From: Pelobates cultripes
Lineage: Eukaryota > Chordata > Amphibia > Anura > Pelobatidae
Assembly (NCBI GenBank): GCA_933207985.1
Contig: OW240912.1
Coordinates: forward strand, 75,637,594-75,701,593
Length of the DNA: 64,000 bases
Direction: 5' to 3'
Shown: in pieces, positions 6,636-43,808 of the stretch
How positions within the stretch are numbered: the first letter of the stretch is position 1
Layout: each line of letters starts with the position of its first letter
Notes under the pieces: generated by a model
Told to the model about the DNA's origin: nothing
The model's database searches: none
What the model saw: only the letters and a program-made list of their open reading frames with translations
Position numbers and translations under genes: made by a program

Positions 6636-8826
6636 GTTCTCCTTTAAAAAATATTTATTATTTGTTTACTTGTTAATACTTTATATTACTGCTTTGCTAA
6701 GCGTGTCTTTTTTAAAAGGCCTATGGAAAGTAATTAGCCATTAGCAATCTGCTTAATCATAGTATACACGTTTGGCTCAATTTGTGCGTGAAAGCAATTC
6801 TTATGATTAACAGAATTCTTTACTCACTTACATTTACGGAGTGACTGACTTATTGAACAAGCAGTGCTGAGTTCAGCACCCGAAACTGTTTCATTACACA
6901 GTGTAATAAATGACTATCAATTTTAAAATGGATTCAAGTCCATGTAACAGGACGTTACTGTAAAATACAAACCTTAAATAAAAATCAAGCCTAACTATTA
7001 GATAAAACATATGATATGTAAATTGTGAATGCATATAGAATACAACATAAAATATGCAGTGTTCACTGTCTAGTTATTTCATATTTATTTTCTAAGACCT
7101 CATTACACCTCTCCTCCACTATTATGTCACTGTGTTTTCTTGCACGTTCTGTACATTTTTGCTTGTTTGTCTCTTAGTATTAAACATAAAAGATATACTT
7201 TTTCACAAAGATCATCACAGAGAGAGATTAGTGTTTCATTATATCAAGGCAAATGTGCCACAGGATGGGACGTTGGTGTACATCACACTGAGAACCCTAC
7301 AAGTTAACCTGAACCGTTCCCACAATTCACAGAGACTATAGCAGTGGGATCTCTACCGATTTCTGGCTGGAGGAAGACCCTGGTTGGAGTATAACCCCTC
7401 TCTTGCCCATCTGGATACAATACTATGAAAACATAGCTCCAGATATCATGGAAAGACCCAAGGGCTTCCCACCAAATTTCTGTCTAAGAACATATCTATC
7501 TTACCATTAGCACCTATGGTGAGTGGCTAAATAAAACTCATGAGTAGAGTATATTTGGCATTGATAGATAGTTTAGTTTTACCATGTTATTTAAAGGGCC
7601 AGACTAATCATCAAAATTATTTTATTTTTAGTAAAGTGGTTGGGGATATAGATTCTGAACTTGCAGCCTTACATTTCCCATGCTTACTAGAGACTTTGGA
7701 TTGAAATAGATTCAATAATTGCTTATTTGACATATCAGAAGCCGGGTGTATTCATTGTTGCTCCGTGCAAAGCACTGGATTGGAGGATCACAGTGATTGC
7801 TGTACATTTGTCATGTGTCCTCAATGCTTCTCTATCAGAAGCATCTGATTGGATAAACGTCATCATGAATGATGACTTCACAAGAGGAGGATCAGGCTAC
7901 ACAGCTACAATGAGCAAGGCACATAGGAAAAGCTTTATTAAGAATTTAGAGCAGGGATGTTGAGCTGCAGCCTACAGATAATACTGGGCTGCAAATGGAA
8001 CAGGCATTTATGGGAGTTATAGTGCTGCAACACCGGGAGGGGGCAAATTTCAACTTCTATTGGTTCATGGCATTTTAAAGTGATTTTTAGCATTTATTGA
8101 GAAGTGTAGAGTAGATTAGCCTGAACTCAGAGCAGGTGATAATTCTGTCCTGTATTTCCTAACTCAATAATTTCACCTTTCGTTGTTTTTATTTTTCAAA
8201 GAGCAAACAATTAACCCCCATTCTGCTTTTGTTGCGCTATACAGGTGATGTCGGTACCTTTCAGCATCAGATGATGAGTAGGGCTATTGCATAATCTTTA
8301 AAGATTTCAGTTTGAACAGCTTTAGAAGAAACATAGGAAAATATTTGTGGAACAACTAGATGATGCATACTGTCTCAGCATCAGCCTGTTTGGTTTTTTT
8401 CAGCAAAGTCGTGACTTCACAGCTTGCTACTAGGCAAACCCTGGGTCCCATCAATCCAGACCTGCAGCAGGCTTAAACTTTTTCTGTATCTGTAGAGGAT
8501 GATGGGGCCTGAAATTTAAAGCAAATCCTTTTATTTTATCCAGATGCAGCATATCTGTGAGACCTAGCATGCACTTTCCTGGCTGCTGAATATCACATCT
8601 GCATGAGTAATAACAATTCTAATGGTTTCCAGAGCAACCAGAGAGGATTTAAATTAATCTTATTTCCTGATATTTGAGGCCTGTTAAAAACATAACACTG
8701 AGTAAAACATACTAAACTATTGAGAGACAATGTATGAAGAGAAAAGGCAGAGAATATCAAATTACATTAAAATTAGACTGTCTTTTAATTATTCTACTCA
8801 TTTAAAGAGTTTCAGGAGTGTTAACT
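6636..8826. other. Noncoding stretch left of the provirus
   Basis: The sequence is AT-rich and no exon or RNA gene was recognised. A short block at about 7955..8060 (GCAGGGATGTTGAGCTGC and following) looks like an eroded interspersed repeat. Confidence 0.4.
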
Positions 8827-9016
8827 TGTAACCGTTCGTACTCCAATTTACCGATATAACGTCTTATAACTTAGAATTTAGCAGGGCTAACCATACAGAT
8901 ATCTTAGCTAAATATTGTATAGTCGGTATAGAGTTTCTCTATTTAAAATACATAAATAATTGAGAATACAATAAAAATAGGAGTTGGAAGCAATAACTTT
9001 TGTCTTATTAATATAG

Positions 9017-9022
9017 TTTATT
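9017..9022 (-). promoter_or_regulatory. Viral polyadenylation signal AATAAA
   Basis: TTTATT on the plus strand reads AATAAA in viral orientation, downstream of the LTR TATA box at about 9197..9204. The equivalent hexamer in the 5' LTR is at 19034..19039. It would place the R/U5 boundary shortly after this point. Confidence 0.6.
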
Positions 9023-9302
9023 GGATAAATGAATAAAGATCCATTAATATATCATAAAGCAGAGTATACAAGATTAAATGAATAAATGCTTGCAATATAA
9101 TTAGTATAACATACCCTCCTGATTATACAGGTAATCTCTCAGTATGTCACCTCCAGAGTCGGTCAGTATGTCTCTATCTAGCATTGATCTAGCATGTATA
9201 TATAGTATAGCATTTCTAATTACTACTGGTAATGTATGGGTTAATTCATCTTAGGGTTAAAAGCAGTTCATATATAAAAATAAAGGAAAAACACCCTTAT
9301 CA

Positions 9303-9565
9303 GTCTAATGTCATAACCTAGACATCTTTAATCTGTATTTGGACTAGAAGTTAGGTTGACATACACCTTAGGGTTAAGAGAAGGTCATATAACAAAATAA
9401 GTCTAATGTCATAACCTAGACATCTTTAATCTGTATTTGGACTAGAAGTTAGGTTGACATACACCTTAGGGTTAAGAGAAGGTCATATAACAAAATAAGT
9501 CTAATGTCATAACCTAGACATCTTTAATCTGTATTTGGACTAGAAGTTAGGTTGACATAGGCAAA
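9303..9565 (-). repeat. 98-bp tandem repeats in 3' LTR U3 (three copies)
   Basis: The units begin GTCTAATGTCATAACC at 9303, 9401 and 9499, exactly 98 bp apart; the third is partial. The 5' LTR has only two (19320, 19418). Tandem U3 repeats upstream of the TATA box are typical places for enhancer elements; that role is inferred. Confidence 0.85.
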
Positions 9566-9716
9566 GCCTTGAATTGTTATTGCATTAAATTAAGACAAGA
9601 TGGAGTAAACATGTTGTGTACTGTAAATAGGTAAAAGGTTATTAGTTAAAGAAACAGTTGCAGTTTAAAGAAATACAATGTAGCAATGTGTATTATACCC
9701 ACAATTGCCCATCACA

Positions 9717-9724
9717 CCCTCCTG
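9717..9724 (-). other. 3' polypurine tract
   Basis: In viral orientation the sequence CAGGAGGG directly precedes the LTR start TGTGATG. This is the expected place and composition for the plus-strand primer of reverse transcription, and it follows the stop codon of the last accessory ORF by only a few bases. Confidence 0.8.
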
Positions 9725-9725
9725 T

Positions 9726-10439
9726 TTAAACTGAGGGTTTCTTTGAAAAAGGTTTCTTTGAAGAATATTTTTTCTTTCTTTGCTTAACACCTCCCTGCTC
9801 ATGTAAGGGAGGGGACTGTGGTGAATAGGACACAGTGGAAGGGACAGGAATGAAACAATTACAATCATATATACCTGTGTGATTGCACATTATGTCATCG
9901 TGATCAGTACGTAAATAATAAAATTCACCTGGCATATAATGTGTTATGTCATTTTGAGTAAACTCTTTTCTCATGTCAGTTTTCCAAATTCCACCCCAGC
10001 ATTTATTAAAATTTCGTGTACACACCATAACTGTTGTGATCCCATATGCACCATGAGAGACAATGTTAATATGACCAATATCTTTGATTAAAGCATATAG
10101 CTGGAATATCTCTTTGGCTCGATCCATGCATTTAATGGATGGTTGATTGTAGTGAGTCAAAAGAGCTGTTGTCTGACAAAAATTTAAGAAGGTCATCAAA
10201 TCCCTCGGTAGTATATTCATGGCTGGATCCTGAAAGGAGAAGCATGTCAAAGTCATCAATTGCCTGTTGTAATCCAAGTTTCTGGGGTGCATTTCTGGTG
10301 GTGGTGATTGTTTTGGAGCGTCTGGATACCGAGTTAGTATTGGTAGCAGGTATTCCTTTAACATCATTGGTTGCCATAAGGACACTGGCACCTTTGTTCT
10401 TGGTGTTTGTCTTTGCATGTTTCCTCTTCTGTGATACAT
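9726..10439 (-). CDS. Bel2/Bet-like accessory protein of the foamy virus
   Basis: This 237-codon frame lies between env and the 3' LTR and overlaps the 3' half of the upstream accessory ORF in another frame, which is the arrangement of bel2 relative to tas/bel1 in known foamy viruses. It stops just before the polypurine tract. The protein has several cysteines (for example C140, C147, C185, C193), no signal peptide or membrane segment, and a strongly basic C-terminus (residues 219..234, rich in K and R) that could be a nuclear or nucleic-acid-binding tail. In exogenous foamy viruses Bel2 is mostly expressed fused to the start of Tas as Bet by splicing, so the true start may be upstream; no splice junction was proven here. 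Function is assigned by position only, since I see no residue-level family signature. Confidence 0.65.
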   Translation of the reverse strand: MYHRRGNMQRQTPRTKVPVSLWQPMMLKEYLLPILTRYPDAPKQSPPPEMHPRNLDYNRQLMTLTCFSFQDPAMNILPRDLMTFLNFCQTTALLTHYNQPSIKCMDRAKEIFQLYALIKDIGHINIVSHGAYGITTVMVCTRNFNKCWGGIWKTDMRKEFTQNDITHYMPGEFYYLRTDHDDIMCNHTGIYDCNCFIPVPSTVSYSPQSPPLHEQGGVKQRKKKYSSKKPFSKKPSV

Positions 10440-10710
10440 TTTTACACCTCCTATAATGTGTATAGATTGGATATATGTAATGATAATTGTTCTGATATTT
10501 CTTTATAGAAACAAAACCTTTGTTAGGTCTAAAGATATATGGGTTATTGGAATCAGCAAAATAGTTATGGCAATTCCTACATTGGTATTTAAAATAATAT
10601 TGTCCTGGTACAATTTCTTTAAAAGTTAAGATTGCTCTTTTATGCAAAATCTCTCTAGATCTTTTTGGTATAGTTGATAATTGAAAACATGTAGAAATGA
10701 ATTTATTCAT
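10132..10710 (-). CDS. Tas/Bel1-like transactivator candidate of the foamy virus
   Basis: The 192-codon frame begins at an ATG that overlaps the env stop codon (ATGA at 10707..10710), the position of tas/bel1. Features in order: a CRNC motif with following histidine (residues 44..48) that might bind metal, a lysine/arginine cluster at 94..106 resembling a nuclear localisation signal, a serine/threonine-rich linker, and an acidic-hydrophobic C-terminus at 151..186. The last contains two motifs, DDFDMLLL and FDDLLKFL, of the type found in acidic transcription activation domains. In known foamy viruses Tas binds LTR and internal promoters to switch on transcription. That role here is inferred from position and composition; no sequence identity with known Tas proteins was checked. 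The frame is open throughout. Confidence 0.7.
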   Translation of the reverse strand: MNKFISTCFQLSTIPKRSREILHKRAILTFKEIVPGQYYFKYQCRNCHNYFADSNNPYIFRPNKGFVSIKKYQNNYHYIYPIYTHYRRCKNVSQKRKHAKTNTKNKGASVLMATNDVKGIPATNTNSVSRRSKTITTTRNAPQKLGLQQAIDDFDMLLLSGSSHEYTTEGFDDLLKFLSDNSSFDSLQSTIH

Positions 10711-13700
10711 GTTTCTTTGCCCTGTGAGGGAGAAAAGAAATGATTCTCCAAGTTACAATTAGTAAAAATATAATAATTATAGTTATCATTATTGGTTTCA
10801 AATACCAGAAAAATACTAAATCCTGTTCCTATTACCCCTTTAACAAGATTTGCTAAAGATTCAGCTATGCTTTGAACAGTTTTACCAATTGAAGGTAAAA
10901 TAGGAGTCAATATCTTACCAAGTTCTTTCAGCCAGTATGGGAAATCTCTCTCGTGGTCTTGAATATTGAGAAGAGAAAGCCTAACTCTTATTAATATATC
11001 TTGCACTTGCTCGTGGGTGGAGCATAAGGTGATTTTGAATTGTTGTAAGTGAGCCAAGAAAGCACTCATATATGGAAGTTTTAAAGATATTGGGGGTATG
11101 TGTATTTTAACGATATCTGTTAGTTTATAATTTTGTAAAGGAGGTTTTAACAATCTTCCATAACAGTAAATGTCATAATCCGTGGTTACAATTAATGGTT
11201 GTAAAGCAGGTAACTTGCAATCTGAATAAGGACTCATAATTAAATAAGAACCATTTCTTAAAGATTCAAAGTACAGATAATCATTTTGTATTGGTTCTAT
11301 ATTAAGTAAGCAATCAGCTGATGTGGCAGGATTATTTCCACAAGGAGTCTGTACTTTTACATCTTCACATATTACATAACTTTTTTCTAGGCATCTTGAA
11401 ACAGACAAATAATATATCTGATCACATATCTTTGATATATATTGATATGGATGTTGTATTGTTATCTTTGCCAACTTTTCACCTGTTTGTAACAGGTGAC
11501 CTATATTATCAAGCTTCCAATTCGTAGTGTATATTTCACCTGGAAGAGTTAACTCATAATAAATTTTAACTTCCCACTGGCTAACCTTGGCATTGTTTAA
11601 ATGTTTTGTTTCTCTGATATCATAAACAAAGGTCTGAGAAATGTGCAATAACACTTCGATTTGTTTCTTAGTTAATTTTAACCTTTGAAGCACTTTAGTT
11701 ATGTTAACCAGACTTGTATCAATTAAACCATTTTGTAAATTAGATCGAATATCAAAAATCTTCTGATTCAACATAGATATTTTCACACTTTCTTCTAGTG
11801 TAGAAATATCATATATTAATGCTGCAGTAAGCGTTATCAGGTGGTCTTTAAGAATCAATATACCTTGACGTAGCAATTCATCATTTAGATCAGAATAATG
11901 GGATACAACCTGAATAGCTTCTACAAGTAATTGGCCGGTATATAGGAAGGAGTTTGCATTGGTTAACAAAGTCCTTCTTCTGCGAGACACACGTCTCATG
12001 TTACATTCATCTGGATCACTATTTTGTATATTTTTATATGTAATATCTAAAAATGTTTTATTAGTAGGCCATGCTGCGATTGCAAATGGCATCTCTGCAA
12101 CATTCTGTAAAGTACAATTCTGAAATTCACAAGGTCTATCTTCATTAGCGATTAAAACATACATTTGAGTTTTTATACCATTAATTACAATATCTGTATT
12201 ATATATCATACTGTCACTGACACATTTCTGATACAGGGAGTATACTAAATAATTTGCATTAATACTTATCGGTTTCCTCTCGATGCACCACATTCCTGGA
12301 AGTCCAGAATATAGCAAAAATCCTTGGTCTATGTTTTTAGGGAGCCATTTAAAGTTCTGATTGGTATAATTATACCAGAGAGAGCAAGGAGCACAACGGT
12401 AGATTATATCTGGATTAGAACCATTACAGATTCCTTGTTTTATCAATGTCTCTGTAGTTATGTTACAGGAATTTCTTGCTTTGCAGGTATGTACATAATA
12501 TGTGGAGTTAAGAAATGCTGCAAATCGGGGTTTAGTACAAGTGTCCCATGGGGTCAAGTCTCTAAAAAGCTTTTGTTGACCATTCATATTCCATTCTTTT
12601 GGCAATGCTTCTGCTTTTAATAGGCCTGTCTTATTGTTGCTCATCAACTGCTGCAAGGTTTCTTTCACTAATTGATGTATTTCATCTGAATTCAAATTCA
12701 CACGCCACCATGAGTCATTATAAAGTTCATTACTACAGAATATGGTTCCAGTGTGGTTTCTCACTCCACCAGGAAATCTATATTCCTCTTCTTCTGCTCC
12801 TTCCCAGTAACCAATTTTTTCTGAATTGTAGGTAAAAATCTGTGTCTTATACTGAGAGGTGCTTAAATAATCAATTAGGTATTCTTTGTACTGTATTCCA
12901 TCTTGGGTAATACCTGGACGTGGACAGTGATCAGCCTTTATTTCTGATTCCGGCCATCTTCTGTTTGACTGGAAATTAACATAATAACAATGTCCAAAAT
13001 TAGCATAGCACATCTTTTCAGCATAAGAAGGCTGTTTGCGATAGTCATCCAATGGTAAACTATATGGCAAAGTCTTTTCTTGAATCACCTTCATATGTGC
13101 ATCCAAAGTTTCTTTGACAAGCATCTGTCCCGTCTCACTTTTAATTCCAGCATCTTTAGCCATCACTGCTGAGTCTAGTATTAGGATTTGAGATAGTCCA
13201 ATCACTTGTTTCTTGTGTATAATCGGTTTTGGGTATGGTTTCCAATAGGTTCCTTGTGGAATACCAGAATACGTCACATTGGCGATTACTTCGCTGTGAA
13301 TTGTGTCTCTTTTCATAAGATGGTTCCTGGAGGTCATCCTCACGATCATGGAACTTGTATTGTATGCAGTCCAATTCAATACGGGAGCTTCTTGGTTGTT
13401 AACATAATCCCAATGCAGTTTCAAAACGACTACTAGGGTTGATGTTATCATGATAATGCAGCAGATAGTAATAAAGAGACACCACATCCAATTCTTCAGT
13501 ATCCATTTGCTTCCATCTTTGCACTTCTTTCTTACTGTGTTCCATACTTTATGTAAAGTCTGTTTTTCTGGTAATAATGATTCATGTTCCAATTCTTCCA
13601 TAGCAATTGTAAATATGTCATTTTTTGTTCGTAGATCCTTCTCCTTTGCATTTTCAATTATCTGATCATGAGTTGGTCTATTGCGAGGCTGTGAGATGGG

Positions 13701-13781
13701 TTGCTTTTCCATCCTCTTTTGTGTTTCTCTTGCTTCCTTCGACAGTATCCACTGTGTCAGGGTCAATGGTTCTGTGGACAT
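10707..13781 (-). CDS. env: Foamy virus Env glycoprotein (C-terminus apparently frameshifted)
   Basis: The 1024-codon frame overlaps the end of pol by 104 nt, as in other foamy viruses. Domains in order: a cytoplasmic leader with an N-terminal tryptophan (W11) and a hydrophobic leader anchor at about 98..120; a long surface part with many N-X-S/T sites and cysteines; a furin-type site RRRR at 600..603 separating surface and transmembrane subunits; and a heptad-rich transmembrane subunit. The predicted protein ends without a convincing membrane anchor. In the neighbouring frame, starting at about 10810 next to a run of five A (T in viral orientation), a long hydrophobic stretch and a basic tail with a dilysine-type end are encoded up to about 10703. 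This suggests a single frameshift near the 3' end, real or an assembly error in a homopolymer. Length is close to that of known foamy Envs. Confidence 0.9.
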   Translation of the reverse strand: MSTEPLTLTQWILSKEARETQKRMEKQPISQPRNRPTHDQIIENAKEKDLRTKNDIFTIAMEELEHESLLPEKQTLHKVWNTVRKKCKDGSKWILKNWMWCLFITICCIIMITSTLVVVLKLHWDYVNNQEAPVLNWTAYNTSSMIVRMTSRNHLMKRDTIHSEVIANVTYSGIPQGTYWKPYPKPIIHKKQVIGLSQILILDSAVMAKDAGIKSETGQMLVKETLDAHMKVIQEKTLPYSLPLDDYRKQPSYAEKMCYANFGHCYYVNFQSNRRWPESEIKADHCPRPGITQDGIQYKEYLIDYLSTSQYKTQIFTYNSEKIGYWEGAEEEEYRFPGGVRNHTGTIFCSNELYNDSWWRVNLNSDEIHQLVKETLQQLMSNNKTGLLKAEALPKEWNMNGQQKLFRDLTPWDTCTKPRFAAFLNSTYYVHTCKARNSCNITTETLIKQGICNGSNPDIIYRCAPCSLWYNYTNQNFKWLPKNIDQGFLLYSGLPGMWCIERKPISINANYLVYSLYQKCVSDSMIYNTDIVINGIKTQMYVLIANEDRPCEFQNCTLQNVAEMPFAIAAWPTNKTFLDITYKNIQNSDPDECNMRRVSRRRRTLLTNANSFLYTGQLLVEAIQVVSHYSDLNDELLRQGILILKDHLITLTAALIYDISTLEESVKISMLNQKIFDIRSNLQNGLIDTSLVNITKVLQRLKLTKKQIEVLLHISQTFVYDIRETKHLNNAKVSQWEVKIYYELTLPGEIYTTNWKLDNIGHLLQTGEKLAKITIQHPYQYISKICDQIYYLSVSRCLEKSYVICEDVKVQTPCGNNPATSADCLLNIEPIQNDYLYFESLRNGSYLIMSPYSDCKLPALQPLIVTTDYDIYCYGRLLKPPLQNYKLTDIVKIHIPPISLKLPYMSAFLAHLQQFKITLCSTHEQVQDILIRVRLSLLNIQDHERDFPYWLKELGKILTPILPSIGKTVQSIAESLANLVKGVIGTGFSIFLVFETNNDNYNYYIFTNCNLENHFFSPSQGKET

Positions 13782-16700
13782 CTTGGAAATACTTTGCTGG
13801 TTTTAAATTATCAATGCTTACTGTTCTCTGTTGGCCTTGTTTGTTCTCCGTAATAAAAGTTCTCGGATTTAAAATCGTCACGATTTTCACAGGCTTTTTC
13901 CAGCGTGGTCGCAGGGGGCGTAGTGTATGGACCCTCTCCAGGACGAACTGGCCAACAGTAGGAACCCAAGTAGTAGGTGACGGATTGTGGTGCGTTGTGG
14001 GTCGAGAAAACAATTCTCTAATTTCCTCTAACAGAACCAGCTGTTCTAATCTCCCTGGTGCAGAAATATGTTCAGTAAAAGTTGTGTTACAAGGGACACC
14101 ATACAACATTTCATATGGAGTTTTACCATTAGTAGTATTAGGTATATTGTTAATGCCCAATTGTACCATAGGAATAAGTGGATACCACTGTGTGGGGCGA
14201 GCAACTAGCAACTTGGTTAATAGTCTTTTCACCTCAGCATTTTTCCGTTCCACAACCCCACAACTTTGAGGGTGGTTGGGTGCACTGATTTCCCAAAGTA
14301 ACCCAAACGAGGTTGCCCAGTTCTGGGTTTCTTTTGCAGTAAATGCAGGACCACCATCTGAGTGGATGGTCCTAGGCTTACCAATGCATACCAAGGAAGT
14401 GAGACTAGCAATCGTGGTATTAGAGGTCGCACTTCGCACAGGGTATAACCAAGTAAACCTGGTACATGCATCAACACATACTAAAACATATTTATAACCA
14501 TGGGATGGTGGCAAAGGTCCAATATGATCAATATATAATAATTCAAAAGGTACATTGGGTATGGATTTTTCAATAAATGGTACGACTGAATGATTCGGTC
14601 TATTCACTAATAAGCATTGCTTACAATTACCAATAACATGAACAACAGTCCTTCTCATATTGGGCCACCAGTATCTTTTTTTCTGAGTAATAAGTACATT
14701 ATCTCTACCCAAATGAGCTTGTCCTAATCCTGAATGAGCCTCTAGTACAAGTTTTTCCCTCTCCGTTACAGGAGGAACAATGAAGTTATTACCATCAATG
14801 GTTACTATACAATCAACTCCTTCTAAATGATAGGAGTATTTGGTAGGATAGCCAGCTGGATTATGTCTGGTCTTATCCAGGCAAGCATTTAACTCTGCAT
14901 CTACTTTGAGAGAAAGGGTATGTTTCTGTGATCTAGTGACCACATTAACAGAATAGCTTTGGCTGACACTTTGCGCCAAAGTGTCTGCCAGCTGGTTGCC
15001 AACTGTATGAGGTGAAGAACCTAACTTTCTGTGTGCAGGTTCATACACAATTTCAATGTCAGGTTTCTTTTGCAAATATGCATCAATTTGTTTCCACAAA
15101 GAAATATGTTTCAACGGTTTACGTTGTGCTGTAAGAAAACCATTTGAGCGCCAGACTGAGAGATCTTGTACAGTGGATCTTGCGAGATAAGCTGAATCTG
15201 TCACTATCAAAACCGGCCCCACTATTGACATACTTTCCTTTAAAGCATGTGTATATGCATATATTTCGGCATACTGTGCTGAATGATCACCTATGGGTAT
15301 TGACCAAGTCTGATCTACCTGTCCTGGTACACATTTTACAATACCGCAACCTGCAGATTTATTTTTGTTTTCGGCTAAAGAATTTACAGCTGATCCATCT
15401 GTATAAAATATAGCTTTATAAAAATCATTAGGGTGTGTCTGTCTTTCCCATTTATTTTCAGAATCTGATGAGGTTGGTAGATCATCTAATGTTGGTAGTG
15501 TTTTATCATGAATAAAGGTTAGTTGTGGATCCTCTAACAGAGCATACCATTTGAGCCAACGGCTTTTTAAAGCCTTTCTTTCTGTAATTGTTTGTTTCTG
15601 CAGAGCATTTAGTGAAGCAACAGGTGTAAATAACACAATCTGTTGTCCTTGAGCTATGTTTCTTGATTTTAATAATGTAATCGAAATAGCTGTCAAAACT
15701 TTTTCCAGAGGAGTATATTTTAATTCAGTTTTAGTAAAAACATAAGATAGTAGACATAAAGGAGTCACGTCATTATCATTATATAAACGTGCATATGCTA
15801 CATGTGGGGAACATGTGATTATAGCTATAAGCTTTGTATCACAATTTCGTTGGGCAAGATATGATGTGTTATTCACTGCATTAATAAGAGCTTTTAATGC
15901 TTTGTCATTTTCTGTTGTCCATTCAAAAGCAATTGTATTGCGTTCATTCTTAATTTCTCTTGAGATGGCTGAGTTTAATGAGACTATCAGTTCTTTATAA
16001 TTTGGAATAAAAAACATTGCATAATTTAGAAGGCCAACAATGCTCCTCAGTTGTTTTAAATTCTTTGGAGCAGAAATATTCGATATCTTATCTTTGTAGG
16101 ACGTAGTCAAACCACGACCTTGATTCGAGATTTCAAATCCTAAATAGTTTACTGTATGTCTGGCTATTTGTGACTTTTTTAATGAAATAATATAGCCAGC
16201 TATTTTCAGTCTATGAAGAACTGTTTTCAATACATCCAAATGTTCACTTTCAGTGTCATGTGAAAAATATATATCATCTACATAGACTTCCACATTAGGA
16301 ATGTCAGTTAGCAATGAAATAACATCTGCTGTAAATAATGCCGGAGAATTAATAAAACCTTGTGGTAATCTCGTCCAAACATACTGTTTACCTGCCCAGG
16401 TAAAACTAGTTATATTATAACTTTCAGGACTGATGGGATGGCTCCAGAAACCATTGGATAAATCCAATGTTGTTTTATATTTTCCTCTAAACATATGCTG
16501 TAATATGGATGGGGAATGTGTATTCTGAGCTGCTACAGGTGGTGTAACTCTATTCACCTCTCGATAGTCTAACACCATTCTCCATTTATGATCTGATTTT
16601 GGTACAGGATAGATGGCAGAATTCATGGAACTATATTGTTCCTTAATAACACCTTGTTTCAGCAGGTCATTTATTACAATCTGTATATCAGGTATTGCAA

Positions 16701-17214
16701 GTGGGTTAATTTTATATTGTGCCTGTTTCTTAGGTGCAAGTGTTCCTGTTGCTATATGATGACAAATATCCCTCCTGTGTCCTACTTGATTTTCCCATTG
16801 TTGAAAAACATCCTTATTCTGTACTAGAATTTCTTTTAATTCTTTTTTATTTGTTAATGAGGTGAAATTTAATTGATGTTCTATATGTGAATCAACATTG
16901 ATAGGTACAGTAAGCTGTAGTGCAGGTTTTGAAACTATATCTATGAAATGTGAAACATCTTTATATGCAATTAAGAATGAAACATCCAAACTAGGATGTT
17001 CAGCCAGTTCAAGATTAACCTTCCTTCCATTAACTTTAATAGTATCATGATATAAAGGATATGTACCATTGCCCTCTAATGTTTCAATAGTAACATTAGA
17101 AAATGGATTGGTTTTTAATATGTTTTTCTGTACAAGTGAAATTTCTGCTTGTGTATCTAACACCCCTTCATATGTCCTCAGATCATATGTAATCTGCAAA
17201 TCAAGATTATTCAT
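13678..17214 (-). CDS. pol: Foamy virus Pol (protease, reverse transcriptase, RNase H, integrase)
   Basis: The 1178-codon frame is intact. Domains in order: a retroviral aspartic protease with DTQA at 20..23 instead of the usual D-T/S-G-A; reverse transcriptase with LPQGF and catalytic YVDD near 311; RNase H beginning with FYTDGS near 607; integrase with an HHCC zinc-binding domain (about 826..868), catalytic D near 894 (YIDHIGP), D near 951 (HSDGG) and E near 989 (VVERKN); then a C-terminal DNA-binding domain. The start ATG overlaps the gag stop as ATGA (17211..17214). An own ATG rather than a frameshift fusion fits the spumavirus strategy of translating Pol from a spliced mRNA. All visible catalytic residues are present. 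Confidence 0.95.
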   Translation of the reverse strand: MNNLDLQITYDLRTYEGVLDTQAEISLVQKNILKTNPFSNVTIETLEGNGTYPLYHDTIKVNGRKVNLELAEHPSLDVSFLIAYKDVSHFIDIVSKPALQLTVPINVDSHIEHQLNFTSLTNKKELKEILVQNKDVFQQWENQVGHRRDICHHIATGTLAPKKQAQYKINPLAIPDIQIVINDLLKQGVIKEQYSSMNSAIYPVPKSDHKWRMVLDYREVNRVTPPVAAQNTHSPSILQHMFRGKYKTTLDLSNGFWSHPISPESYNITSFTWAGKQYVWTRLPQGFINSPALFTADVISLLTDIPNVEVYVDDIYFSHDTESEHLDVLKTVLHRLKIAGYIISLKKSQIARHTVNYLGFEISNQGRGLTTSYKDKISNISAPKNLKQLRSIVGLLNYAMFFIPNYKELIVSLNSAISREIKNERNTIAFEWTTENDKALKALINAVNNTSYLAQRNCDTKLIAIITCSPHVAYARLYNDNDVTPLCLLSYVFTKTELKYTPLEKVLTAISITLLKSRNIAQGQQIVLFTPVASLNALQKQTITERKALKSRWLKWYALLEDPQLTFIHDKTLPTLDDLPTSSDSENKWERQTHPNDFYKAIFYTDGSAVNSLAENKNKSAGCGIVKCVPGQVDQTWSIPIGDHSAQYAEIYAYTHALKESMSIVGPVLIVTDSAYLARSTVQDLSVWRSNGFLTAQRKPLKHISLWKQIDAYLQKKPDIEIVYEPAHRKLGSSPHTVGNQLADTLAQSVSQSYSVNVVTRSQKHTLSLKVDAELNACLDKTRHNPAGYPTKYSYHLEGVDCIVTIDGNNFIVPPVTEREKLVLEAHSGLGQAHLGRDNVLITQKKRYWWPNMRRTVVHVIGNCKQCLLVNRPNHSVVPFIEKSIPNVPFELLYIDHIGPLPPSHGYKYVLVCVDACTRFTWLYPVRSATSNTTIASLTSLVCIGKPRTIHSDGGPAFTAKETQNWATSFGLLWEISAPNHPQSCGVVERKNAEVKRLLTKLLVARPTQWYPLIPMVQLGINNIPNTTNGKTPYEMLYGVPCNTTFTEHISAPGRLEQLVLLEEIRELFSRPTTHHNPSPTTWVPTVGQFVLERVHTLRPLRPRWKKPVKIVTILNPRTFITENKQGQQRTVSIDNLKPAKYFQDVHRTIDPDTVDTVEGSKRNTKEDGKATHLTASQ
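14752..14764 (-). other. Possible central polypurine tract in pol
   Basis: In viral orientation this is the 13-nt purine run GGAGAGGGAAAAA near the start of the integrase region. Foamy viruses are known to use an internal polypurine tract in pol, but this run also simply encodes E-R-E-K, so the call is tentative. Confidence 0.3.
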
Positions 17215-18743
17215 CCTGATTTTCTTCTTGCTCTGGGTTTTGATTCTCGGTTTTCTTTATTTTTTTGTATCTTTCTGGTTGTTGCTGGAGGATGTGTTGG
17301 AGGATGTGAGGATGTTGATGGGGTAGTAGAACTTTTATCTTGTCCTGTTCTGTCTCTATCCCTGACTTGTCCTGGGGATCCTCCGTATTTGTCTGGGCCT
17401 TTAACCCTTGGTCTCAATCTATATCCTCCGCTATATCCAGGAAATTCTAAATATCTTGGGGCTTCTCCTTTGGAAGTTGACTGATATCTTTCAGTACGAT
17501 CTATCTCTGTAGTCTGTTCTTTTTCCCTTTGATATGTCCTATATGAGGGACGAGAATAATCCCTGTTAGTTCCATCTATAGATGTAGATGGTCTAGATTC
17601 CCTTTTTATGAATGTAGAACTTCTCCTATCTTGCTTTTGCCTGTCTCTTCTAGGGGTAAATGCTGCATTGCTTTTCCTATCTTTGTTTCCTGCTTTTTCT
17701 TTGCTTTTATACCCCTCTCCTGTAAGATCCTTACCTAAAAGTGTGTATGTGCTCCTTAGGATTTCAGGCATTCTATCACTTTTCTCATTTTCGGTCAATC
17801 CATGCAACCTTCTTTCTATGTCAAGTATTAATGCTTGACCTTTTACTAGTGGTTTCAAGCAACCCCAAACCATGGAATGATTTCTGCTTGTGAATCTCAT
17901 CCCTAAATTATATGCTGCTATAATCCCTGACTTTGTATTCACTCCCGCCAGTGTGTCTGACAGTGTAGAAATCGTCACTTTGCCATAAGTCTTTTCATAT
18001 AGAGTGGATATTACAATATCCCAGTTTTCAGCTTCAGCTTGTGTAATTGACAGTCCAGAGGGCAGTAATGCATTTACTAGCCCCTGTCTCTGAACTGCAG
18101 TTTGAGTTGGGTAAACCCCATCTAACGCATGTGTTTTTTCATTAAGCCATAATGCTATTTCCTTCGCAGATGTTGGTACTGTGCCAATAGTAGCTTTAAT
18201 ATTAGACATAGGAATACCCTGTATTCCTGTCCCCACTGTGTGAACTATAGGAGCACTAACAATTGGTGCTATTAACGCCTGTCGTAACAAGTCTCTCAAG
18301 AAAATAATTTCTGGCATTAACCTCTCTCTTTCTGCTCGTGCAGACTGTGCAGGTGCCGGTAATTCATGGCTGTGTACGGGAACATATAGTAATCCCCTAC
18401 CTATACCCCACTGTCCTGGGACTAATGGACCATGTCTTGCTGGTGTATTAGGTATATTAGGTCGTTTACCAAATAGTTGTATATATGTCTCTCTTGTCAT
18501 ATTAATTAAGGTCTGTGTACTTAAATCTGGTGGAGTGTTAGGTAGTTCTGTAAATGTTGGCTGATCTAGATCTACATTTTCCGCATCAGTTAATTGAATG
18601 CTGATTACAGCATACCTGGCTCCTGCACCCCAAGGGCCTTGTACAATTTCACATAGTACCATTTCTCCATGATGAAGATCTCTCTGTGCCTGGGCTACAA
18701 AAAGTTCATTAAATTCTCGATATCTCAAGAATAATTGTCCCAT
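17211..18743 (-). CDS. gag: Foamy virus Gag
   Basis: The 510-codon frame is intact. Residues 36..53 read G-P-W-G-A-G-A-R with L51-T52-D53, matching the foamy Gag cytoplasmic targeting and retention pattern G-x-W-G-x3-R-x7-L-x-D that directs capsid assembly. The C-terminal third (from about 335) is very rich in R, K, S and G, with a glycine-arginine stretch around 430..470 in place of zinc knuckles, as expected of foamy Gag nucleic-acid binding. No Cys-His boxes are present. It is shorter than primate foamy Gags, which are typically over 600 residues. It starts about 80 nt downstream of the primer binding site and ends in the ATGA overlap with pol. Confidence 0.93.
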   Translation of the reverse strand: MGQLFLRYREFNELFVAQAQRDLHHGEMVLCEIVQGPWGAGARYAVISIQLTDAENVDLDQPTFTELPNTPPDLSTQTLINMTRETYIQLFGKRPNIPNTPARHGPLVPGQWGIGRGLLYVPVHSHELPAPAQSARAERERLMPEIIFLRDLLRQALIAPIVSAPIVHTVGTGIQGIPMSNIKATIGTVPTSAKEIALWLNEKTHALDGVYPTQTAVQRQGLVNALLPSGLSITQAEAENWDIVISTLYEKTYGKVTISTLSDTLAGVNTKSGIIAAYNLGMRFTSRNHSMVWGCLKPLVKGQALILDIERRLHGLTENEKSDRMPEILRSTYTLLGKDLTGEGYKSKEKAGNKDRKSNAAFTPRRDRQKQDRRSSTFIKRESRPSTSIDGTNRDYSRPSYRTYQREKEQTTEIDRTERYQSTSKGEAPRYLEFPGYSGGYRLRPRVKGPDKYGGSPGQVRDRDRTGQDKSSTTPSTSSHPPTHPPATTRKIQKNKENRESKPRARRKSG

Positions 18744-18823
18744 GACAAAGAATTGTGTCTTCTCTTACATATAAGAGGTTACCTAGGTATTTTTGCTTAA
18801 AATAAGTAAAGCTAGTGCTTCCA

Positions 18824-18841
18824 GCCCCACGTTGGGCGCCA
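18824..18841 (-). other. Primer binding site, tRNA-Lys1,2 type
   Basis: In viral orientation the 18 nt read TGGCGCCCAACGTGGGGC, two bases downstream of the LTR end. This is the tRNA-Lys1,2 primer binding site used by foamy viruses. The short leader to gag contains a GTAAGA (about 18763..18768) that could be a splice donor. Confidence 0.92.
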
Positions 18842-19212
18842 ATTGTAACCGTTCGTACTCCAATTTACCGATATAACGTCTTATAACTTAGAATTTAGCA
18901 GGGCTAACCATACAGATATCTTAGCTAAATATTGTATAGTCGGTATAGAGTTTCTCTATTTAAAATACATAAATAATTGAGAATACAATAAAAATAGGAG
19001 TTGGAAGCAATAACTTTTGTCTTATTAATATAGTTTATTGGATAAATGAATAAAGATCCATTAATATATCATAAAGCAGAGTATACAAGATTAAATGAAT
19101 AAATGCTTGCAATATAATTAGTATAACATACCCTCCTGATTATACAGGTAATCTCTCAGTATGTCACCTCCAGAGTCGGTCAGTATGTCTCTATCTAGCA
19201 TTGATCTAGCAT

Positions 19213-19220
19213 GTATATAT
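19213..19220 (-). promoter_or_regulatory. TATA box of foamy virus 5' LTR promoter
   Basis: A TATATATA-type run lies about 100 bp downstream (viral orientation) of the U3 98-bp repeats and about 180 bp before the AATAAA at 19034..19039. This gives a plausible U3-R-U5 layout. The transcription start is not defined by sequence alone. Confidence 0.6.
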
Positions 19221-19319
19221 AGTATAGCATTTCTAATTACTACTGGTAATGTATGGGTTAATTCATCTTAGGGTTAAAATCAGTTCATATATAAAAATAA
19301 AGGAAAAACACCCTTATCA

Positions 19320-19484
19320 GTCTAATGTCATAACCTAGACATCTTTAATCTGTATTTGGACTAGAAGTTAGGTTGACATACACCTTAGGGTTAAGAGAAG
19401 GTCATATAACAAAATAAGTCTAATGTCATAACCTAGACATCTTTAATCTGTATTTGGACTAGACGTTAGGATGACATAGGCAAA
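19320..19484 (-). repeat. 98-bp tandem repeats in 5' LTR U3 (two copies)
   Basis: The units start at 19320 and 19418, 98 bp apart; the second is partial. The matching block in the 3' LTR has three units. Confidence 0.85.
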
Positions 19485-19635
19485 GCCTTGAATTGTTATT
19501 GCATTAAATTAAGACAAGATGGAGTAAACATGTTGTGTACTGTAAATAGGTAAAAGGTTATTAGTTAAAGAAACAGTTGCAGTTTAAAGAAATACAATGT
19601 AGCAATGTGTATTATACCCACAATTGCCCATCACA

Positions 19636-22600
19636 CTGTTATAGATTGAATAGCAGTCAGTGTCCTTAAAGCGGGTGTGTTACGCTAACAGTGGAAACGG
19701 TGACCAGTGCCACCACTTATATCTGGTGTCACAATAGCTTGGATTTAAAAACAAAAATCTTTTTTCACTGTTATAGATTGAATAGCAGTCAGTGTCCTTA
19801 AAGCGGGTGTGTTACGCTAACAGTGGATACGGTGACCTTTGCCACCACTTATATCTGGTGTCACAATAGCTTGGATTTAAAAACAAAAAACTTTTTTCAC
19901 TGTTATAGATTGAATAGCAGTCAGTGTCCTTAAAGCTGGTGTGTTACGCTAACAGTGGATACGCTGACCAGTGCCACCAATTAGATCTGGTGACACAAAG
20001 CTTGGATTTAAAAAAACAAAACACTTTTTTCACTGTTATAGATTGAATAGCAGTTAGTTATCTTCATGCAGGTGTGTTACGCTAACAGTGGATACGGTGA
20101 CCAGTGCCACCACTTAGATCTGGTGACACAAAGCTTGGATTTAAAAACAAAAAACACTTTTTTCACTGTTATAGATTGAATAGCAGTCAGTGTCCTTAAA
20201 GGGGGTGTGTTACGCTAACAGTGGATACGCTGACAAGTGCCACTAATTAGATCTGGTGTCACAATAGTTTGGATTTAAAAAAAAAATAATCTTTTTTCAC
20301 TGTTATAGATTGAATAGCAGTCAGTGTCCTTAAAGCGGGTGCGTTACGCTAACAGTGGATACGCTGACAAGTGCCACTAATTAGATCTGGTGTCACAATA
20401 GTTTGGATTTAAAAAAAAAATAATCTTTTTCACTGTTATAGATTGAATAGCAGTCAGTGTCCTTAAAGCGGGTGTGTTACGTTAACAGTGGATACGCTGA
20501 CAAGTGCCACTAATTAGATCCTGTGTCACAATAGCTTGGATTTAAAAACAAAAAACTTTTTTTACTGTTATAGATTGAATAGCAGTCAGTGTCCTTAAAG
20601 CGGCTGTGTTACGCTAACAGTGGATACGCTGACAAGTGCCACTAATTAGATCTGGTGTCACAATAGTTTGGATTTAAAAAAAAAATAATCTTTTTTCACT
20701 GTTATAGATTGAATAGCAGTCAGTGTCCTTAAAGCGGGTGTGTTACGCCAACAGTGGATACGCTGACAAGTGCCACTAATTAGATCCTGTGTCACAATAG
20801 TTTGGATTTAAAAAAAATAATAATCTTTTTTCACTGTTATAGATTGAATAGCAGTCAGTGTCCTTAAAGCGGGTGTGTTACGCTAACAGTGGATACGTGA
20901 CCAGTGCCACCACTTAGATCTGGTGTCACAATAGCTTGGATTTAAAAAAAAACACTTTTTTCACTGTTATAGATTGAATAGCAGTTAGTTATCTTCAAGC
21001 AGGTGTGTTACGCCAACAGTGGATACGGTGACCAGTGCCACCAATTAGATCTGGTGACACAAAGCTTGGATTTAAAAAAACAAAACACTTTTTTCACTGT
21101 TATAGATTGAATAGCAGTCAGTGTCCTTAAAGCGGGTGTGTTACGCTAACAGTGGATACGCTGACCAGTGCCACTAATTAGATCTGGTGTCACAATAGCT
21201 TTGATTTAAAAAAAAAATAATCTTTTTTCACTGTTATAGATTGAATAGCAGTCAGTGTCCTTAAAGCGGGTGTGTTACGCTAACAGTGGATACGCTGACA
21301 AGTGCCACTAATTAGATCCTGTGTCACAATAGTTTCGATTTAAAAACAAAAAACTTTTTTTACTGTTATAGATTGAATAGCAGTCAGTGTCCTTAAAGCA
21401 GGTGTGTTACGCCAACAGTGGATACGCTGACAAGTGCCACTAATTAGATCCTGTGTCACAATAGCTTGGATTTAAAAACAAAAAACTTTTTTCACTGTTA
21501 TAGATTGAATAGCAGTCAGTGTCCTTAAAGCGGTGTGTTACGCTAACAGTGGATACGGTGACCAGTGCCACCACTTATATCTGGTGTCACAATAGCTTGG
21601 ATTTAAAAAAAAAAAACATTTTTCACTGTTATAGATTGAATAGCAGTCAGTGTCCTTAAAGCGGGTGTGTTACGCTAACAGTGGATACGGTGACCAGTGC
21701 CACCACTTATATCTGGTGTCACAATAGCTTGGATTTAAAAAAAAAACCACTTTTTCACTGTTATAGATTGAATAGCAGTCAGTGTCCTTAAAGCGGGTGT
21801 GTTACGCTAACAGTGGATACGGTGACCAGTGCCACCACTTAGATCTGGTGTCACAATGGCTGGGATTTAAAACAAAACACTTTTTTCACTGTTATAGATT
21901 GAATAGCAAAGTTAGTTATCTTCAAGCAGGTGTGTTACGCTAACAGTGGATACGGTGACCAAAGTGCCACCACTTAGATCTGGTGTCACAATAGCTTGAT
22001 TTAAAAACAAAAAACTTTCTTTTCACCGTTATAGATTGAATAGCAGTCAGTGTCCTTAAAGGCTGTGTTACGCTAACAGTGGATATCGGTGACCAAAGTG
22101 CCACCACTCTTGTGATCTGGTGTCACAATAGTTTGGATTTAAAACAAAAAACTTTTTTCACTGTTATAGATTGAATAGCAGTCAGTGTCCTTAAAGCTGG
22201 GTGTGTTACGCCTAACAGTGGGATACGTAGTGACCAGTGCCACCACTTGTGATCTGCGCGTCACAATAGCTTGATTTTTAAAACAAAAAACTTTTTCACT
22301 GTTATAGATTGAATAGCAGTCAGTGTCCTGTAAAGCAGGTGTGTTACACTAACAGTGGATACGGTGACCAGTGCCACCACTTAGATCTGGTGACACAATA
22401 GTTTGGATTTAAAAACAAAAAACTTTTTTCACTGTTATAGATTGAATAGCAGTCAGTGTCCTTAAAGCGGGTGTGTCACGCTAACAGTGGATACGGTGCC
22501 CAGTGCCACCACTAACTGGTGTCATAATAGCTTGGATTTAAAAACAAAAAACTTTTTTCACTGTTATAGATTGAATAGCAGTTAGTTATCTTCAAGCAGG

Positions 22601-22774
22601 TGTGTGACGCTAACAGTGGATACGGTGACCAGTGCCACCATTTAGATCTGGTGACACAATAGCTTGGATTTAAAAACAAAAAACTTTTTTCACTGTTATA
22701 GATTGAATAGCAGTCAGTGTCCTTAAAGCGGGTGTGTTACGCTAACAGTGGATACGGTGCACAGTGCCACCACT
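19636..22774. repeat. 132-bp satellite array, about 24 units
   Basis: The monomer starts CTGTTATAGATTGAATAGCAG and ends in an A/T-rich tract with TTTTTTCA. The first two starts are 132 bp apart (19636, 19768), and the array continues with small length changes until the assembly gap. Each unit contains inverted arms CACTGTTA/TAACAGTG and an imperfect GGTGACCAG/CTGGTGTCAC pair. A variant monomer (CAGTTAGTTATCTTCAAGC type) recurs at about 20052, 20985, 21905 (with an AA insertion) and 22580, hinting at a seven-unit higher-order period. It is noncoding, and its full length is unknown because the gap truncates it. Confidence 0.92.
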
Positions 22775-22874
22775 NNNNNNNNNNNNNNNNNNNNNNNNNN
22801 NNNNNNNNNNNNNNNNNNNNNNNNNNNNNNNNNNNNNNNNNNNNNNNNNNNNNNNNNNNNNNNNNNNNNNNNNN
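22775..22874. other. Assembly gap (100 N)
   Basis: Exactly 100 N, the usual placeholder for a gap of unknown size, at the end of a satellite array that would be hard to assemble. Confidence 0.98.
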
Positions 22875-38193: not shown

Positions 38194-38706
38194 GGGTGTA
38201 GCTTATTCAATATTGTATGGGGCCCGGGCTCTGCTTATGGCAAGTCCTGCAGGGTTGTGTGCTGGGAGTCCTGGGTGTAGCTGATTCAATATTGTATGGG
38301 GCCCAGGCTCTGCTTATGGCAAGTCCTGCAGGGTTGTGTGCTGGGAGTCCTGGGTGTAGCTGATTCAATATTGTATGGGGCCCAGGCTCTGCTTATGGCA
38401 AGTCCTGCAGGGTTGTGTGCTGGGAGTCCTGGGTGTAGCTGATTCAATATTGTATGGGGCCCAGGCTCTGCTTATGGCAAGTCCTGCAGGGTTGTGTGCT
38501 GGGAGTCCTGGGTGTAGCTGATTCAATATTGTATGGGGCCCAGGCTCTGCTTATGGCAAGTCCTGCAGGGTTGTGTGCTGGGAGTCCTGGGTGTAGCTGA
38601 TTCAATATTGCATTGGGCCGAGGCTCTGCTTATGGCAAGTCCTGCAGGGTTGTGTGCTGGGAGTCCTGGGTGTAGCTGATTCAATATTGTATGGGGCCCA
38701 GGCTCT
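38194..38706. repeat. 79-bp minisatellite, about 6.5 units
   Basis: Units begin GGGTGTAGCTGATTCAATATTG and recur every 79 bp (38194, 38273, 38352, ...). Copies are nearly identical, with a few changes in the sixth (GCATTGGGCCGAGG). The minus-strand open frame over it is an artefact of a repeat length not divisible by three. Confidence 0.92.
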
Positions 38707-41528: not shown

Positions 41529-42440
41529 CAGCTCTGGAAAAAAATTAGGAGACCACAACAAAATTATCAATTTCTCGAATTCTACTATTTATAGGTATGT
41601 GTTTGAGTAAAATATATATAAAAAAAATTCTATAAATTACTAACAAAATTTCTTTCAAATTCCAAATAATAATATTGTTATTTTGAGCATTTATTTGCAG
41701 AAAATTAGAATTGCTCAAAATACCAAAAATGATGCAATGTTTGAAGACCTTGAATAATGTAAGGAAAACAAATAGGTATTCATGTTTAAATAATGTTTTT
41801 ACTTAGGAAGAGTTCGGAAATCAATATTTGTTGGAATAACCCTGATTTTCTTTCACAGCTTTCACGCATCCTTGCATGCTCTCTACCAGTCTTTCACATT
41901 GCTGTTGAGTGACTTCATGCCATACCTGGTGCATAAATTCAAGCAACTTTGTTTTAATGGCCTGTGACCAATCATTTTCCTATTGATCCTAAGAGGTATT
42001 CAATGGGTTTCGGGTATGGAGATTGCATTGGCAGTGACAAAGTCTTGATCTGGTGGACCTCAATGCATACCTTGATTGACCTGTCTGTGTGGCATGAAGC
42101 ATTGTCCTGCTGAATAAACCAATCCTCAGTTGACAGAACTTCGTCACAGCAGAAGGAAGCACATTTTCTTCCAAGATAACCTTGTACATGGCTTGATTCA
42201 TGTGTCCTTCACAAAGATGAATCTGCTTGTTTCCAGCCTTGCTTAACCACCACCCCATCATCACTAATCCTCCAACAAATTTCACAGTGGGTGAAAGATA
42301 GCGTGGCTTGTGAGACTTTCCGGGTCTCAATTTAACCATTATACAATCAAGTCTTGGGCAAAGTTGGAAATTGGACCCATCAGAGATTACCTTACTCAAA
42401 TTCTTATGGACTTTGGCAGACGTCAGCCTAGCTTGTCTTT
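41529..42440 (-). mobile_element. Tc1/mariner element, decayed, one end kept
   Basis: The left end after a TA dinucleotide reads CAGCTCTGGAAAAAAATTAG followed by GAGACCAC, a terminal inverted repeat I recognise from vertebrate Tc1-like elements. The matching right end is absent, so the element is truncated or rearranged. Confidence 0.8.
41820..42440 (-). pseudogene. Tc1-like transposase remnant
   Basis: The minus frame 42399..41989 reads VISDGSNFQLCPR, LSPTVKFVGGLVMMGWW, IHLCEGHMNQAMYKVILEENVLPSA, the DDE-domain region of Tc1-like transposases around the second catalytic aspartate. The sequence after that is frameshifted, and the N-terminal DNA-binding part is not recognisable. It is inactive. 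Confidence 0.82.
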
Positions 42441-43708: not shown

Positions 43709-43808
43709 NNNNNNNNNNNNNNNNNNNNNNNNNNNNNNNNNNNNNNNNNNNNNNNNNNNNNNNNNNNNNNNNNNNNNNNNNNNNNNNNNNNNNNNNNNNN
43801 NNNNNNNN
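43709..43808. other. Assembly gap (100 N)
   Basis: Exactly 100 N. Sequence missing here could include exons of either neighbouring gene. Confidence 0.98.

What the first reader, a model, noticed from the sequence alone, without database searches (positions are those of the whole stretch)
8827..19635. Near-complete, very young endogenous foamy virus in a probable amphibian genome
All structural genes and two accessory ORFs are open, with matching LTRs, primer binding site and polypurine tract. The two LTRs differ by only three substitutions over about 790 aligned bases, plus one repeat unit. Endogenous foamy viruses are known from fish, amphibians and a few other vertebrates, but copies with every frame open are uncommon. 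If the species is a frog this could be a recently active lineage.
Basis: partly seen in the sequence, partly recalled or inferred. Interest (0 to 1): 0.92.

Follow-up and report, generated by a model that had tools for sequence, protein, structure and literature searches.

The report
Young foamy-virus family in spadefoot toad
This stretch of what is likely a spadefoot toad genome carries one of dozens of nearly identical inherited copies of a foamy virus, a family that likely spread about a million years ago; this copy has a shifted reading frame near the end of its envelope gene and is likely stitched together, by the genome assembly, from two different insertions.

Summary
A foamy provirus lies on the minus strand at exactly 8827-19635: two LTRs, tRNA-Lys type primer site, polypurine tract, gag, pol, env and two accessory ORFs. 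Pfam, PDB matches and a Pol tree place it in Spumaretrovirinae. Scaffold lengths match the published Pelobates cultripes (western spadefoot toad) assembly. (1) env is long but not intact: a frame shift near its 3' end puts the membrane anchor out of frame, a shift seen in none of the other copies compared (17 of 18 fully aligned ones are one base shorter, one is two shorter). (2) The two LTRs very likely do not belong together: the flanks lack the 4-bp target duplication that 8 of 8 complete solo LTRs show, and the window's 3' LTR is identical over 792 bases to a 5' LTR 144 kb away with the same 4-bp flank. So the 3-substitution LTR clock does not date this copy. The family is young: 40 scored LTR copies at 98-100%; four pairs with matching flanks differ at 5 of 3167 sites (0.5-0.9 My; all seven such pairs 0.6-1.0 My); gag shows fewer amino-acid than silent changes. 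Nearest relatives: Pelodytes ibericus (83-85%) and Ascaphus truei (41%). A new member of a known kind, with a recent burst in a frog.

The parts
18842..19635 (-). 5' LTR (792-794 bp), TGTGATGG...GGTTACAAT
18825..18841 (-). primer binding site TGGCGCCCAACGTGGGG, tRNA-Lys type (type recalled; no tRNA was matched here)
17211..18743 (-). gag, 510 aa; Gag_FV_central and Gag_spuma_N
13678..17214 (-). pol, 1178 aa: A9 protease, RT (YVDD), RNase H, integrase (H2C2, D-D-E, SH3); own ATG overlapping the gag stop
10707..13781 (-). env ORF, 1024 aa; leader, SU and TM ectodomain present, last ~34 residues out of frame (anchor lost)
10706..10828 (-). anchor-coding end of env, open in a different frame from the env ORF
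10132..10710 (-). accessory ORF 1, 192 aa; Cys/His-containing, acidic-hydrophobic C-terminus; Tas-like by position (inferred)
9726..10439 (-). accessory ORF 2, 237 aa; homologous to an Ascaphus truei foamy accessory region (35% over 145 aa, E 3e-26)
9717..9723 (-). polypurine tract AGGAGGG
8827..9716 (-). 3' LTR (890 bp, one 98-bp unit more than the 5' LTR)
19636..22774 (.). 132-bp satellite array abutting the 5' LTR, running into a 100-N gap
8807..8826 (.). non-satellite host flank of the 3' LTR; its 4-mer AGTT (minus strand) does not match the ACAG flank of the 5' LTR

Best explanation
This is a provirus-length copy of an endogenous foamy virus, one of dozens of nearly identical copies in a genome whose scaffold lengths match the spadefoot toad Pelobates cultripes, and the copy as assembled is likely a mosaic of two separate insertions. 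Shown: foamy genes and landmarks in order; copies on many chromosomes; 4-bp target duplications at solo LTRs; the missing duplication and mismatched LTRs here; a frame shift in env found in none of the other copies compared. Inferred: the family spread by reverse transcription from a tRNA-Lys primer and integrase-driven insertion, by germline reinfection or retrotransposition, roughly 0.5-3 million years ago, while gag was under selection. Inferred: the 3' end of this copy belongs to an insertion at AGTT whose 5' LTR is placed 144 kb away. Inferred: its 5' end belongs to an insertion into a satellite array at ACAG. An assembly made from corrected reads with N50 5.84 kb likely joined the two inside the shared proviral body.
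For: Foamy identity: Gag_FV_central 3.4e-43, Spuma_A9PTase 2.4e-29, Foamy_virus_ENV 2.2e-190; foamy Pol and integrase structures are the top PDB hits; Pol tree of 17 rows. Host: C1 427,862,828, C7 158,080,380, C13 96,737,958 and C5 330,117,793 bases against 427.9, 158.1 and 96.7 Mb and N50 330 Mb in PMC9164646 (passages). Multi-copy and young: 40 scored LTR hits at 98-100% of 1803 candidates; 37 complete LTRs, mean pairwise difference 0.52%. TSD control: 8 of 8 complete solo LTRs. Mosaic: window LTR flanks ACAG/AGTT; window 3' LTR 0/792 from L016, which carries AGTT, sharing two variants found in 4 of 37 LTRs that the window's 5' LTR lacks. Only 12 of 666 LTR pairs are identical: 10 lie within one set of five LTRs, the other two are L015/L016 and L020/L021, the latter a provirus with matching flanks. 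8 of 11 pairs of 5' and 3' LTR ends within 200 kb share the 4-mer against 1 of 241 other pairs, and 4 of 5 pairs more than 12 kb apart share it, so halves of one provirus appear to be placed apart. Read lengths: PMC9164646. Gag: 8 of 10 copies, the window's included, are free of indels and stops over 1400 nt; variable sites 8 nonsynonymous, 8 synonymous, ratio 0.30, p 0.016.
Against: L016's LTR is 792 bp and the window's 3' LTR 890 bp, so the proposed partners differ by one repeat unit. The body of L016's copy differs from the window's at several places in gag, pol, env and the accessory region, so at most the 3' end can be shared. No 3' LTR carrying ACAG plus satellite was found; the pattern searches for it did not complete. 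The genome search was answered only twice and scores 40 candidates at a time, so copy numbers are lower bounds. A second pair about 10 kb apart, L017/L003, also lacks matching flanks. A 5-mer TGTTA is shared by the window's flanks at offsets of 3 and 1 bases, a chance of about 2%, so a displaced duplication is not strictly excluded.
Confidence: 0.82

Rival explanations
1. Real ectopic recombination in the toad between two near-identical proviruses joined the two flanks; the assembly is right.
For: Many near-identical copies exist; the window has no gap inside the element; both LTR ends are canonical.
Against: 4 of 5 pairs of LTR ends lying 12-200 kb apart on one chromosome share a target 4-mer, two of these four in opposite orientation, which looks like misplaced contigs; corrected reads of N50 5.84 kb mostly cannot span the element; the contig with the matching 5' LTR reaches an N gap with no 3' LTR end seen before it.
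Confidence: 0.15
2. One young insertion, whose target duplication was lost or never made; the 3 LTR differences are its age.
For: LTRs 789/792 identical, matching PBS and PPT, long ORFs. One other pair about 10 kb apart (L017/L003) also lacks matching flanks.
Against: 8 of 8 complete solo LTRs and 3 of 5 same-orientation pairs 9.6-10.1 kb apart (the window being one of the two misses) keep the 4-mer; two of the three differences are family variants carried by 4 of 37 LTRs; the exact edge of a satellite array would have to coincide with the insertion site.
Confidence: 0.05
3. The env frame shift is a residual sequencing or assembly error, so env is in fact open at this locus.
For: The shift is in none of the other copies compared and the assembly uses nanopore data.
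Against: The corrected reads were built with Illumina data; other copies carry their own indels, so real decay may occur, though those too could be errors.
Confidence: 0.3
4. An exogenous virus or contaminant in the sequenced animal, not an inherited element.
For: Long ORFs and close foamy relatives.
Against: Solo LTRs with target duplications on several chromosomes, LTR pairs with substitutions, and older copies down to 77% in the same genome.
Confidence: 0.01

Closest known systems
Endogenous foamy element in Pelodytes ibericus (protein model P0054, RCH25_018869)
   Same: 83% identity over 536 aa of RNase H-integrase and 85% over 157 aa of Env
   Different: Low-quality gene model; only a fragment is held; not the same insertion
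Foamy Env gene models of Ascaphus truei (P0053, P0055)
   Same: Env 41% over 982 aa, P0053 with its anchor; accessory ORF 2 35% over 145 aa
   Different: Distant lineage; annotated as uncharacterized host loci; lacks the RRRR motif in the aligned place
Exogenous mammalian foamy viruses (equine, simian, bovine, feline)
   Same: Named full-length Pols 46-48% identical over 94-98% of length, catalytic residues kept, tRNA-Lys type PBS
   Different: The accessory ORFs here have no Pfam match; the element is inherited and multi-copy
NviFLERV of the eastern newt (PMC5512871, passages)
   Same: Amphibian, LTR-dated; NviFLERV-2 gag and pol without stops and called very young
   Different: tRNA-Asn PBS there; NviFLERV-1 dated about 14 My and keeps its target duplication
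Amphibian foamy viruses of Chen et al. 2021, J Virol (paper not held; known here from citations in PMC10581153, passages, and from recall)
   Same: Frog (Mexican spadefoot toad) and salamander foamy elements
   Different: Whether Pelobates was covered could not be checked

Membership tests
Spumaretrovirinae | Foamy Gag, A9 protease and foamy Env domains | tested here: met
Spumaretrovirinae | Pol groups with foamy viruses | tested here: met
   (16 of the 52 hits plus the window): within a 13-row clade 100/100 holding the foamy Pols and P0016; the inner 12-row node has 93/99; place relative to P0012 unresolved; long branch. No named reptile, bird or amphibian foamy Pol was in the tree
Spumaretrovirinae | tRNA-Lys type primer site | tested here: met
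   type recalled
Spumaretrovirinae | Pol with its own start codon, from a spliced mRNA | tested here: inconclusive
   own ATG present; splicing not testable here
Spumaretrovirinae | Leader peptide and two furin-type sites in Env | tested here: met
   KRD at 157 and RRRR at 600; sites read by motif only, cleavage not tested
Spumaretrovirinae | Membrane anchor and basic tail at the Env C-terminus | tested here: not met
   out of frame in this copy; a defect of this copy: 26 of 28 other copies at 94% or more over this stretch are one base shorter and 2 are two shorter
Spumaretrovirinae | bel1/tas and bel2/bet genes behind env | tested here: inconclusive
   two ORFs at the place, no Pfam match, ORF 2 conserved in Ascaphus, no further protein hits, fold models too poor to use
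Spumaretrovirinae | Internal promoter in env | not tested
   TATA-like strings listed only
Endogenous retrovirus | Several loci, solo LTRs, target duplications | tested here: met
Single intact provirus | Matching target duplication at both ends | tested here: not met
Single intact provirus | LTRs closer to each other than to other copies | tested here: not met
   3 differences between them; 0 between the window 3' LTR and L016; the window 5' LTR is 1 from several other LTRs

The most novel reading that the evidence does not exclude
A foamy virus family is still moving, or was until very recently, in living Pelobates toads: insertions differ between individuals, and an infectious frog foamy virus, the first outside mammals, may still seed them.
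Probability: 0.2. Interest if true: 0.85.

Novelty: new member of a known kind. Interest (0 to 1): 0.52.

Why it matters
Foamy viruses seldom enter germlines (abstract opening of PMC10581153, search listing), and exogenous ones are known mainly from mammals (PMC12386078, passages). A frog genome with dozens of near-identical copies, one whole LTR pair with no difference, and fewer amino-acid than silent changes in gag makes it testable whether foamy viruses still circulate in amphibians. The case also warns that LTR dating and 'intactness' of young multi-copy proviruses in hybrid assemblies need a target-duplication check first.

Tried and rejected
Rejected: single-insertion dating from the window's LTR pair, which would have given 1.2-2.1 My. 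Rejected: exogenous or contaminant origin. Nothing found: Rfam at gathering thresholds (0 matches), tRNA genes (0), IMG/VR stretches matching the Pol peptide patterns (0), Pfam matches that mean anything for the accessory ORFs up to E 10, protein search with the accessory-2 alignment (0 of 1086 candidates at E <= 0.1). AlphaFold models of both accessory ORFs were unusable (mean pLDDT 35 and 38), so no fold search was run. Of 18 partner stretches fetched at the expected distance, 17 showed no LTR end (3 of them read all N) and 1 showed a 3' LTR start; L041, L047, L051, L054, L055 and L056 held pieces of proviral genes. The paper most relevant to amphibian foamy viruses (Chen et al. 2021, PMC8223930) is not held.

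Literature on this family: 'Pelobates' with 'endogenous retrovirus' gave 0 papers; 'foamy virus' with 'spadefoot' gave 1 (the chevrotain paper, which cites a Mexican spadefoot element); 'foamy virus', 'Ascaphus', 'Pelodytes', 'Pelobates' (at least 2 of 4) gave 38, and the 10 listed held no 'foamy virus'. These searches cover one open-licence library only.
Full report
What is there. The element lies on the minus strand at 8827-19635. The 5' LTR (18842-19635) is followed by TGGCGCCCAACGTGGGG. The 3' LTR (8827-9716) is preceded by AGGAGGG. Between them are gag (510 aa), pol (1178 aa), an env ORF (1024 aa) and two accessory ORFs of 192 and 237 aa. The LTRs differ at 3 of 792 aligned bases and by one 98-bp repeat unit.

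Family. Pfam gives Gag_FV_central, Gag_spuma_N, Spuma_A9PTase, RVT_1, RNase_H, integrase domains and Foamy_virus_ENV. The best PDB matches of Pol are foamy Pol and integrase chains, and those of Env are foamy envelope chains. In the protein database Pol is 46-48% identical to named full-length mammalian foamy Pols. Env finds Ascaphus truei (41%) and Pelodytes ibericus (3 hits in all). The Pelodytes protein is 83% identical over 536 aa of RNase H-integrase and 85% over 157 aa of Env. In a tree of 17 Pol rows (16 of the 52 hits and the window) the window falls in the foamy clade (13 rows with P0016, 100/100). Its inner node, with P0012 and ten mammalian viruses, has 93/99, and its place relative to P0012 is unresolved. 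The row is long-branched and no named reptile, bird or amphibian foamy Pol was available. Active-site residues are kept: YVDD in RT, and D896, D953 and E989 in integrase.

Host. The window is C1:75637594-75701593 of a 3.09-Gb genome. C1 is 427,862,828, C5 330,117,793, C7 158,080,380 and C13 96,737,958 bases. The Pelobates cultripes paper (PMC9164646, passages read) reports 3.09 Gb, N50 330 Mb, 13 superscaffolds of 427.9-96.7 Mb and small chromosomes up to 158.1 Mb. It used Illumina, nanopore and Hi-C data, with corrected mega-reads of N50 5.84 kb and contig N50 130 kb. The total held here (3,086,115,345) is slightly below the published 3,094,940,563. I take the host to be this species; the name comes from matching lengths, not from a label.

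env is not intact. Pfam's Env profile match ends at position 950 of 982 in the window but at 980 in Ascaphus. The last residues of the window ORF do not resemble Env (score 14 against the Ascaphus tail, shuffles 16.3; 1711 of 2000 shuffles reach it). A stretch in another frame does (score 73, shuffles 23.9; 0 of 2000) and has a hydrophobic anchor. The same stretch was compared in the genome: 40 copies were scored of 208 candidates. Of 18 other copies aligned over the whole 321-base query, 17 span 320 bases and 1 spans 319; of 28 other copies at 94% or more with at least 150 bases aligned, 26 are one base shorter and 2 are two shorter. So the shift is seen in this copy alone, by mutation or by assembly error. 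Copies in another frame exist at this place; I did not test any of them for being whole.

No target duplication. The flanks read ACAG at the 5' end and AGTT at the 3' end. A 5-mer is shared at offsets of 3 and 1 bases, with a chance of about 2%. Satellite units of 132 bp start exactly at the 5' LTR (19634-22774) and then a 100-N gap follows; none was found elsewhere in the window. For comparison I read the 40 best LTR copies, the window's two included: 18 are 5' LTRs, 11 are 3' LTRs, 8 are complete solo LTRs and 3 lack a start. All 8 complete solo LTRs have a perfect 4-bp duplication.

Two insertions in one. The window's 3' LTR (L015) matches a 5' LTR at C1:75502663 (L016) at 792 of 792 positions. 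Both carry AGTT, and both carry two variants found in 4 of 37 LTRs (3 of 37 lack those sites), which the window's own 5' LTR does not have. The third LTR difference is private to the window's 5' LTR. Identity alone is not unique: 12 of 666 LTR pairs are identical, but 10 of these lie within one set of five LTRs, and the other two are L015/L016 and L020/L021, the latter a provirus with matching flanks. L016's copy runs through gag, pol, env and part of the accessory region and reaches an N gap with no 3' LTR end seen before it. Across all LTR ends, 8 of 11 pairs of 5' and 3' ends within 200 kb share their 4-mer against 1 of 241 other pairs (Fisher p 4e-12). The three misses are the window pair, L017/L003 (9.9 kb apart) and L010/L029. 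Among the 5 pairs more than 12 kb apart 4 match; in that table 3 of the 14 '3' ends' (L027, L034, L038) are copies without a seen start. Such displaced halves are expected if proviruses broke contigs and the pieces were then misplaced. Against this: L016's LTR is one repeat unit shorter than the window's 3' LTR, and the two bodies differ at many places, so at most the 3' end would be shared. The junction search that could have found the satellite insertion's own 3' LTR did not complete.

Age and activity of the family. Seven pairs share their 4-mer and have both LTRs whole. Four lie within 25 kb: 0/792, 3/890, 1/693 and 1/792 (the last inverted in the assembly). Three lie 50-144 kb apart: 0/792 (L016/L015), 3/792 (L026/L013) and 2/792 (L011/L029). 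At 0.924-1.53e-9 substitutions per site per year (rate as used in PMC5512871, passages) the first four (5 of 3167) give 0.52-0.85 My, limits 0.17-2.0; all seven (10 of 5543) give 0.59-0.98 My, limits 0.28-1.8. Mean pairwise difference of 37 LTRs is 0.52%, or 1.7-2.8 My; private changes per LTR give 0.86-1.43 My. In the first 1400 nt of gag, 8 of 10 copies (the window's included) have no indel and no stop. The seven other indel-free copies show 8 nonsynonymous and 8 synonymous variants against the window over 1077 and 321 sites, a ratio of 0.30 (p 0.016). Of 6 copies read over the accessory region, the window's included, accessory ORF 1 is covered whole and open in 5; accessory ORF 2 is covered whole and open in 3, in part in 2, and barely in 1. 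Env-tail copies down to 77% show older relatives in the same genome.

Accessory ORFs. ORF 2 is homologous to the tail of an Ascaphus model that joins Env to an accessory region (35% over 145 aa, E 3e-26). No Pfam family fits either ORF. ORF 1 ends in an acidic-hydrophobic stretch that resembles an activation domain (recalled resemblance), and sits where tas/bel1 lies; Tas-like function is inferred, not shown.

Verdict. The particular copy is neither fully open nor, very likely, a single insertion. Novelty: new member of a known kind; amphibian foamy elements are in print (PMC5512871 and PMC10581153, passages), including a spadefoot element cited there.

Noticed in passing
window 38194-38706: 79-bp tandem array, 6.5 copies at 98%
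   Followed up: no
window 44288-45523: Degenerate CCAGTGTC-type minisatellite region in several periods
   Followed up: no
window 22775-22874 and 43709-43808: Two 100-N scaffold gaps
   Followed up: partly
window 34750-35283 and 41989-42507: Weak, below-cutoff traces of a reverse-transcriptase zinc-binding domain and a Tc3-type transposase
   Followed up: no
P0053 and P0055 (Ascaphus truei): A full-length foamy Env with anchor is annotated as a host gene, with a model joining Env to an accessory region; could be a provirus or a co-opted gene
   Followed up: partly
P0012: A 1156-aa foamy Pol on a 10.3-kb contig of unnamed source, 46% to the window, branching near it with its order unresolved
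   Followed up: partly
L018/L019, L011/L029, L013/L026: LTR ends sharing target 4-mers but placed 25-104 kb apart, two pairs in opposite orientation, pointing to misplaced contigs in the assembly
   Followed up: partly
LTRs of L001-L040: The 98-bp LTR repeat varies in number between copies: of 37 LTRs 23 are 792 bp, 6 are 890, and 3 are 693-696
   Followed up: partly
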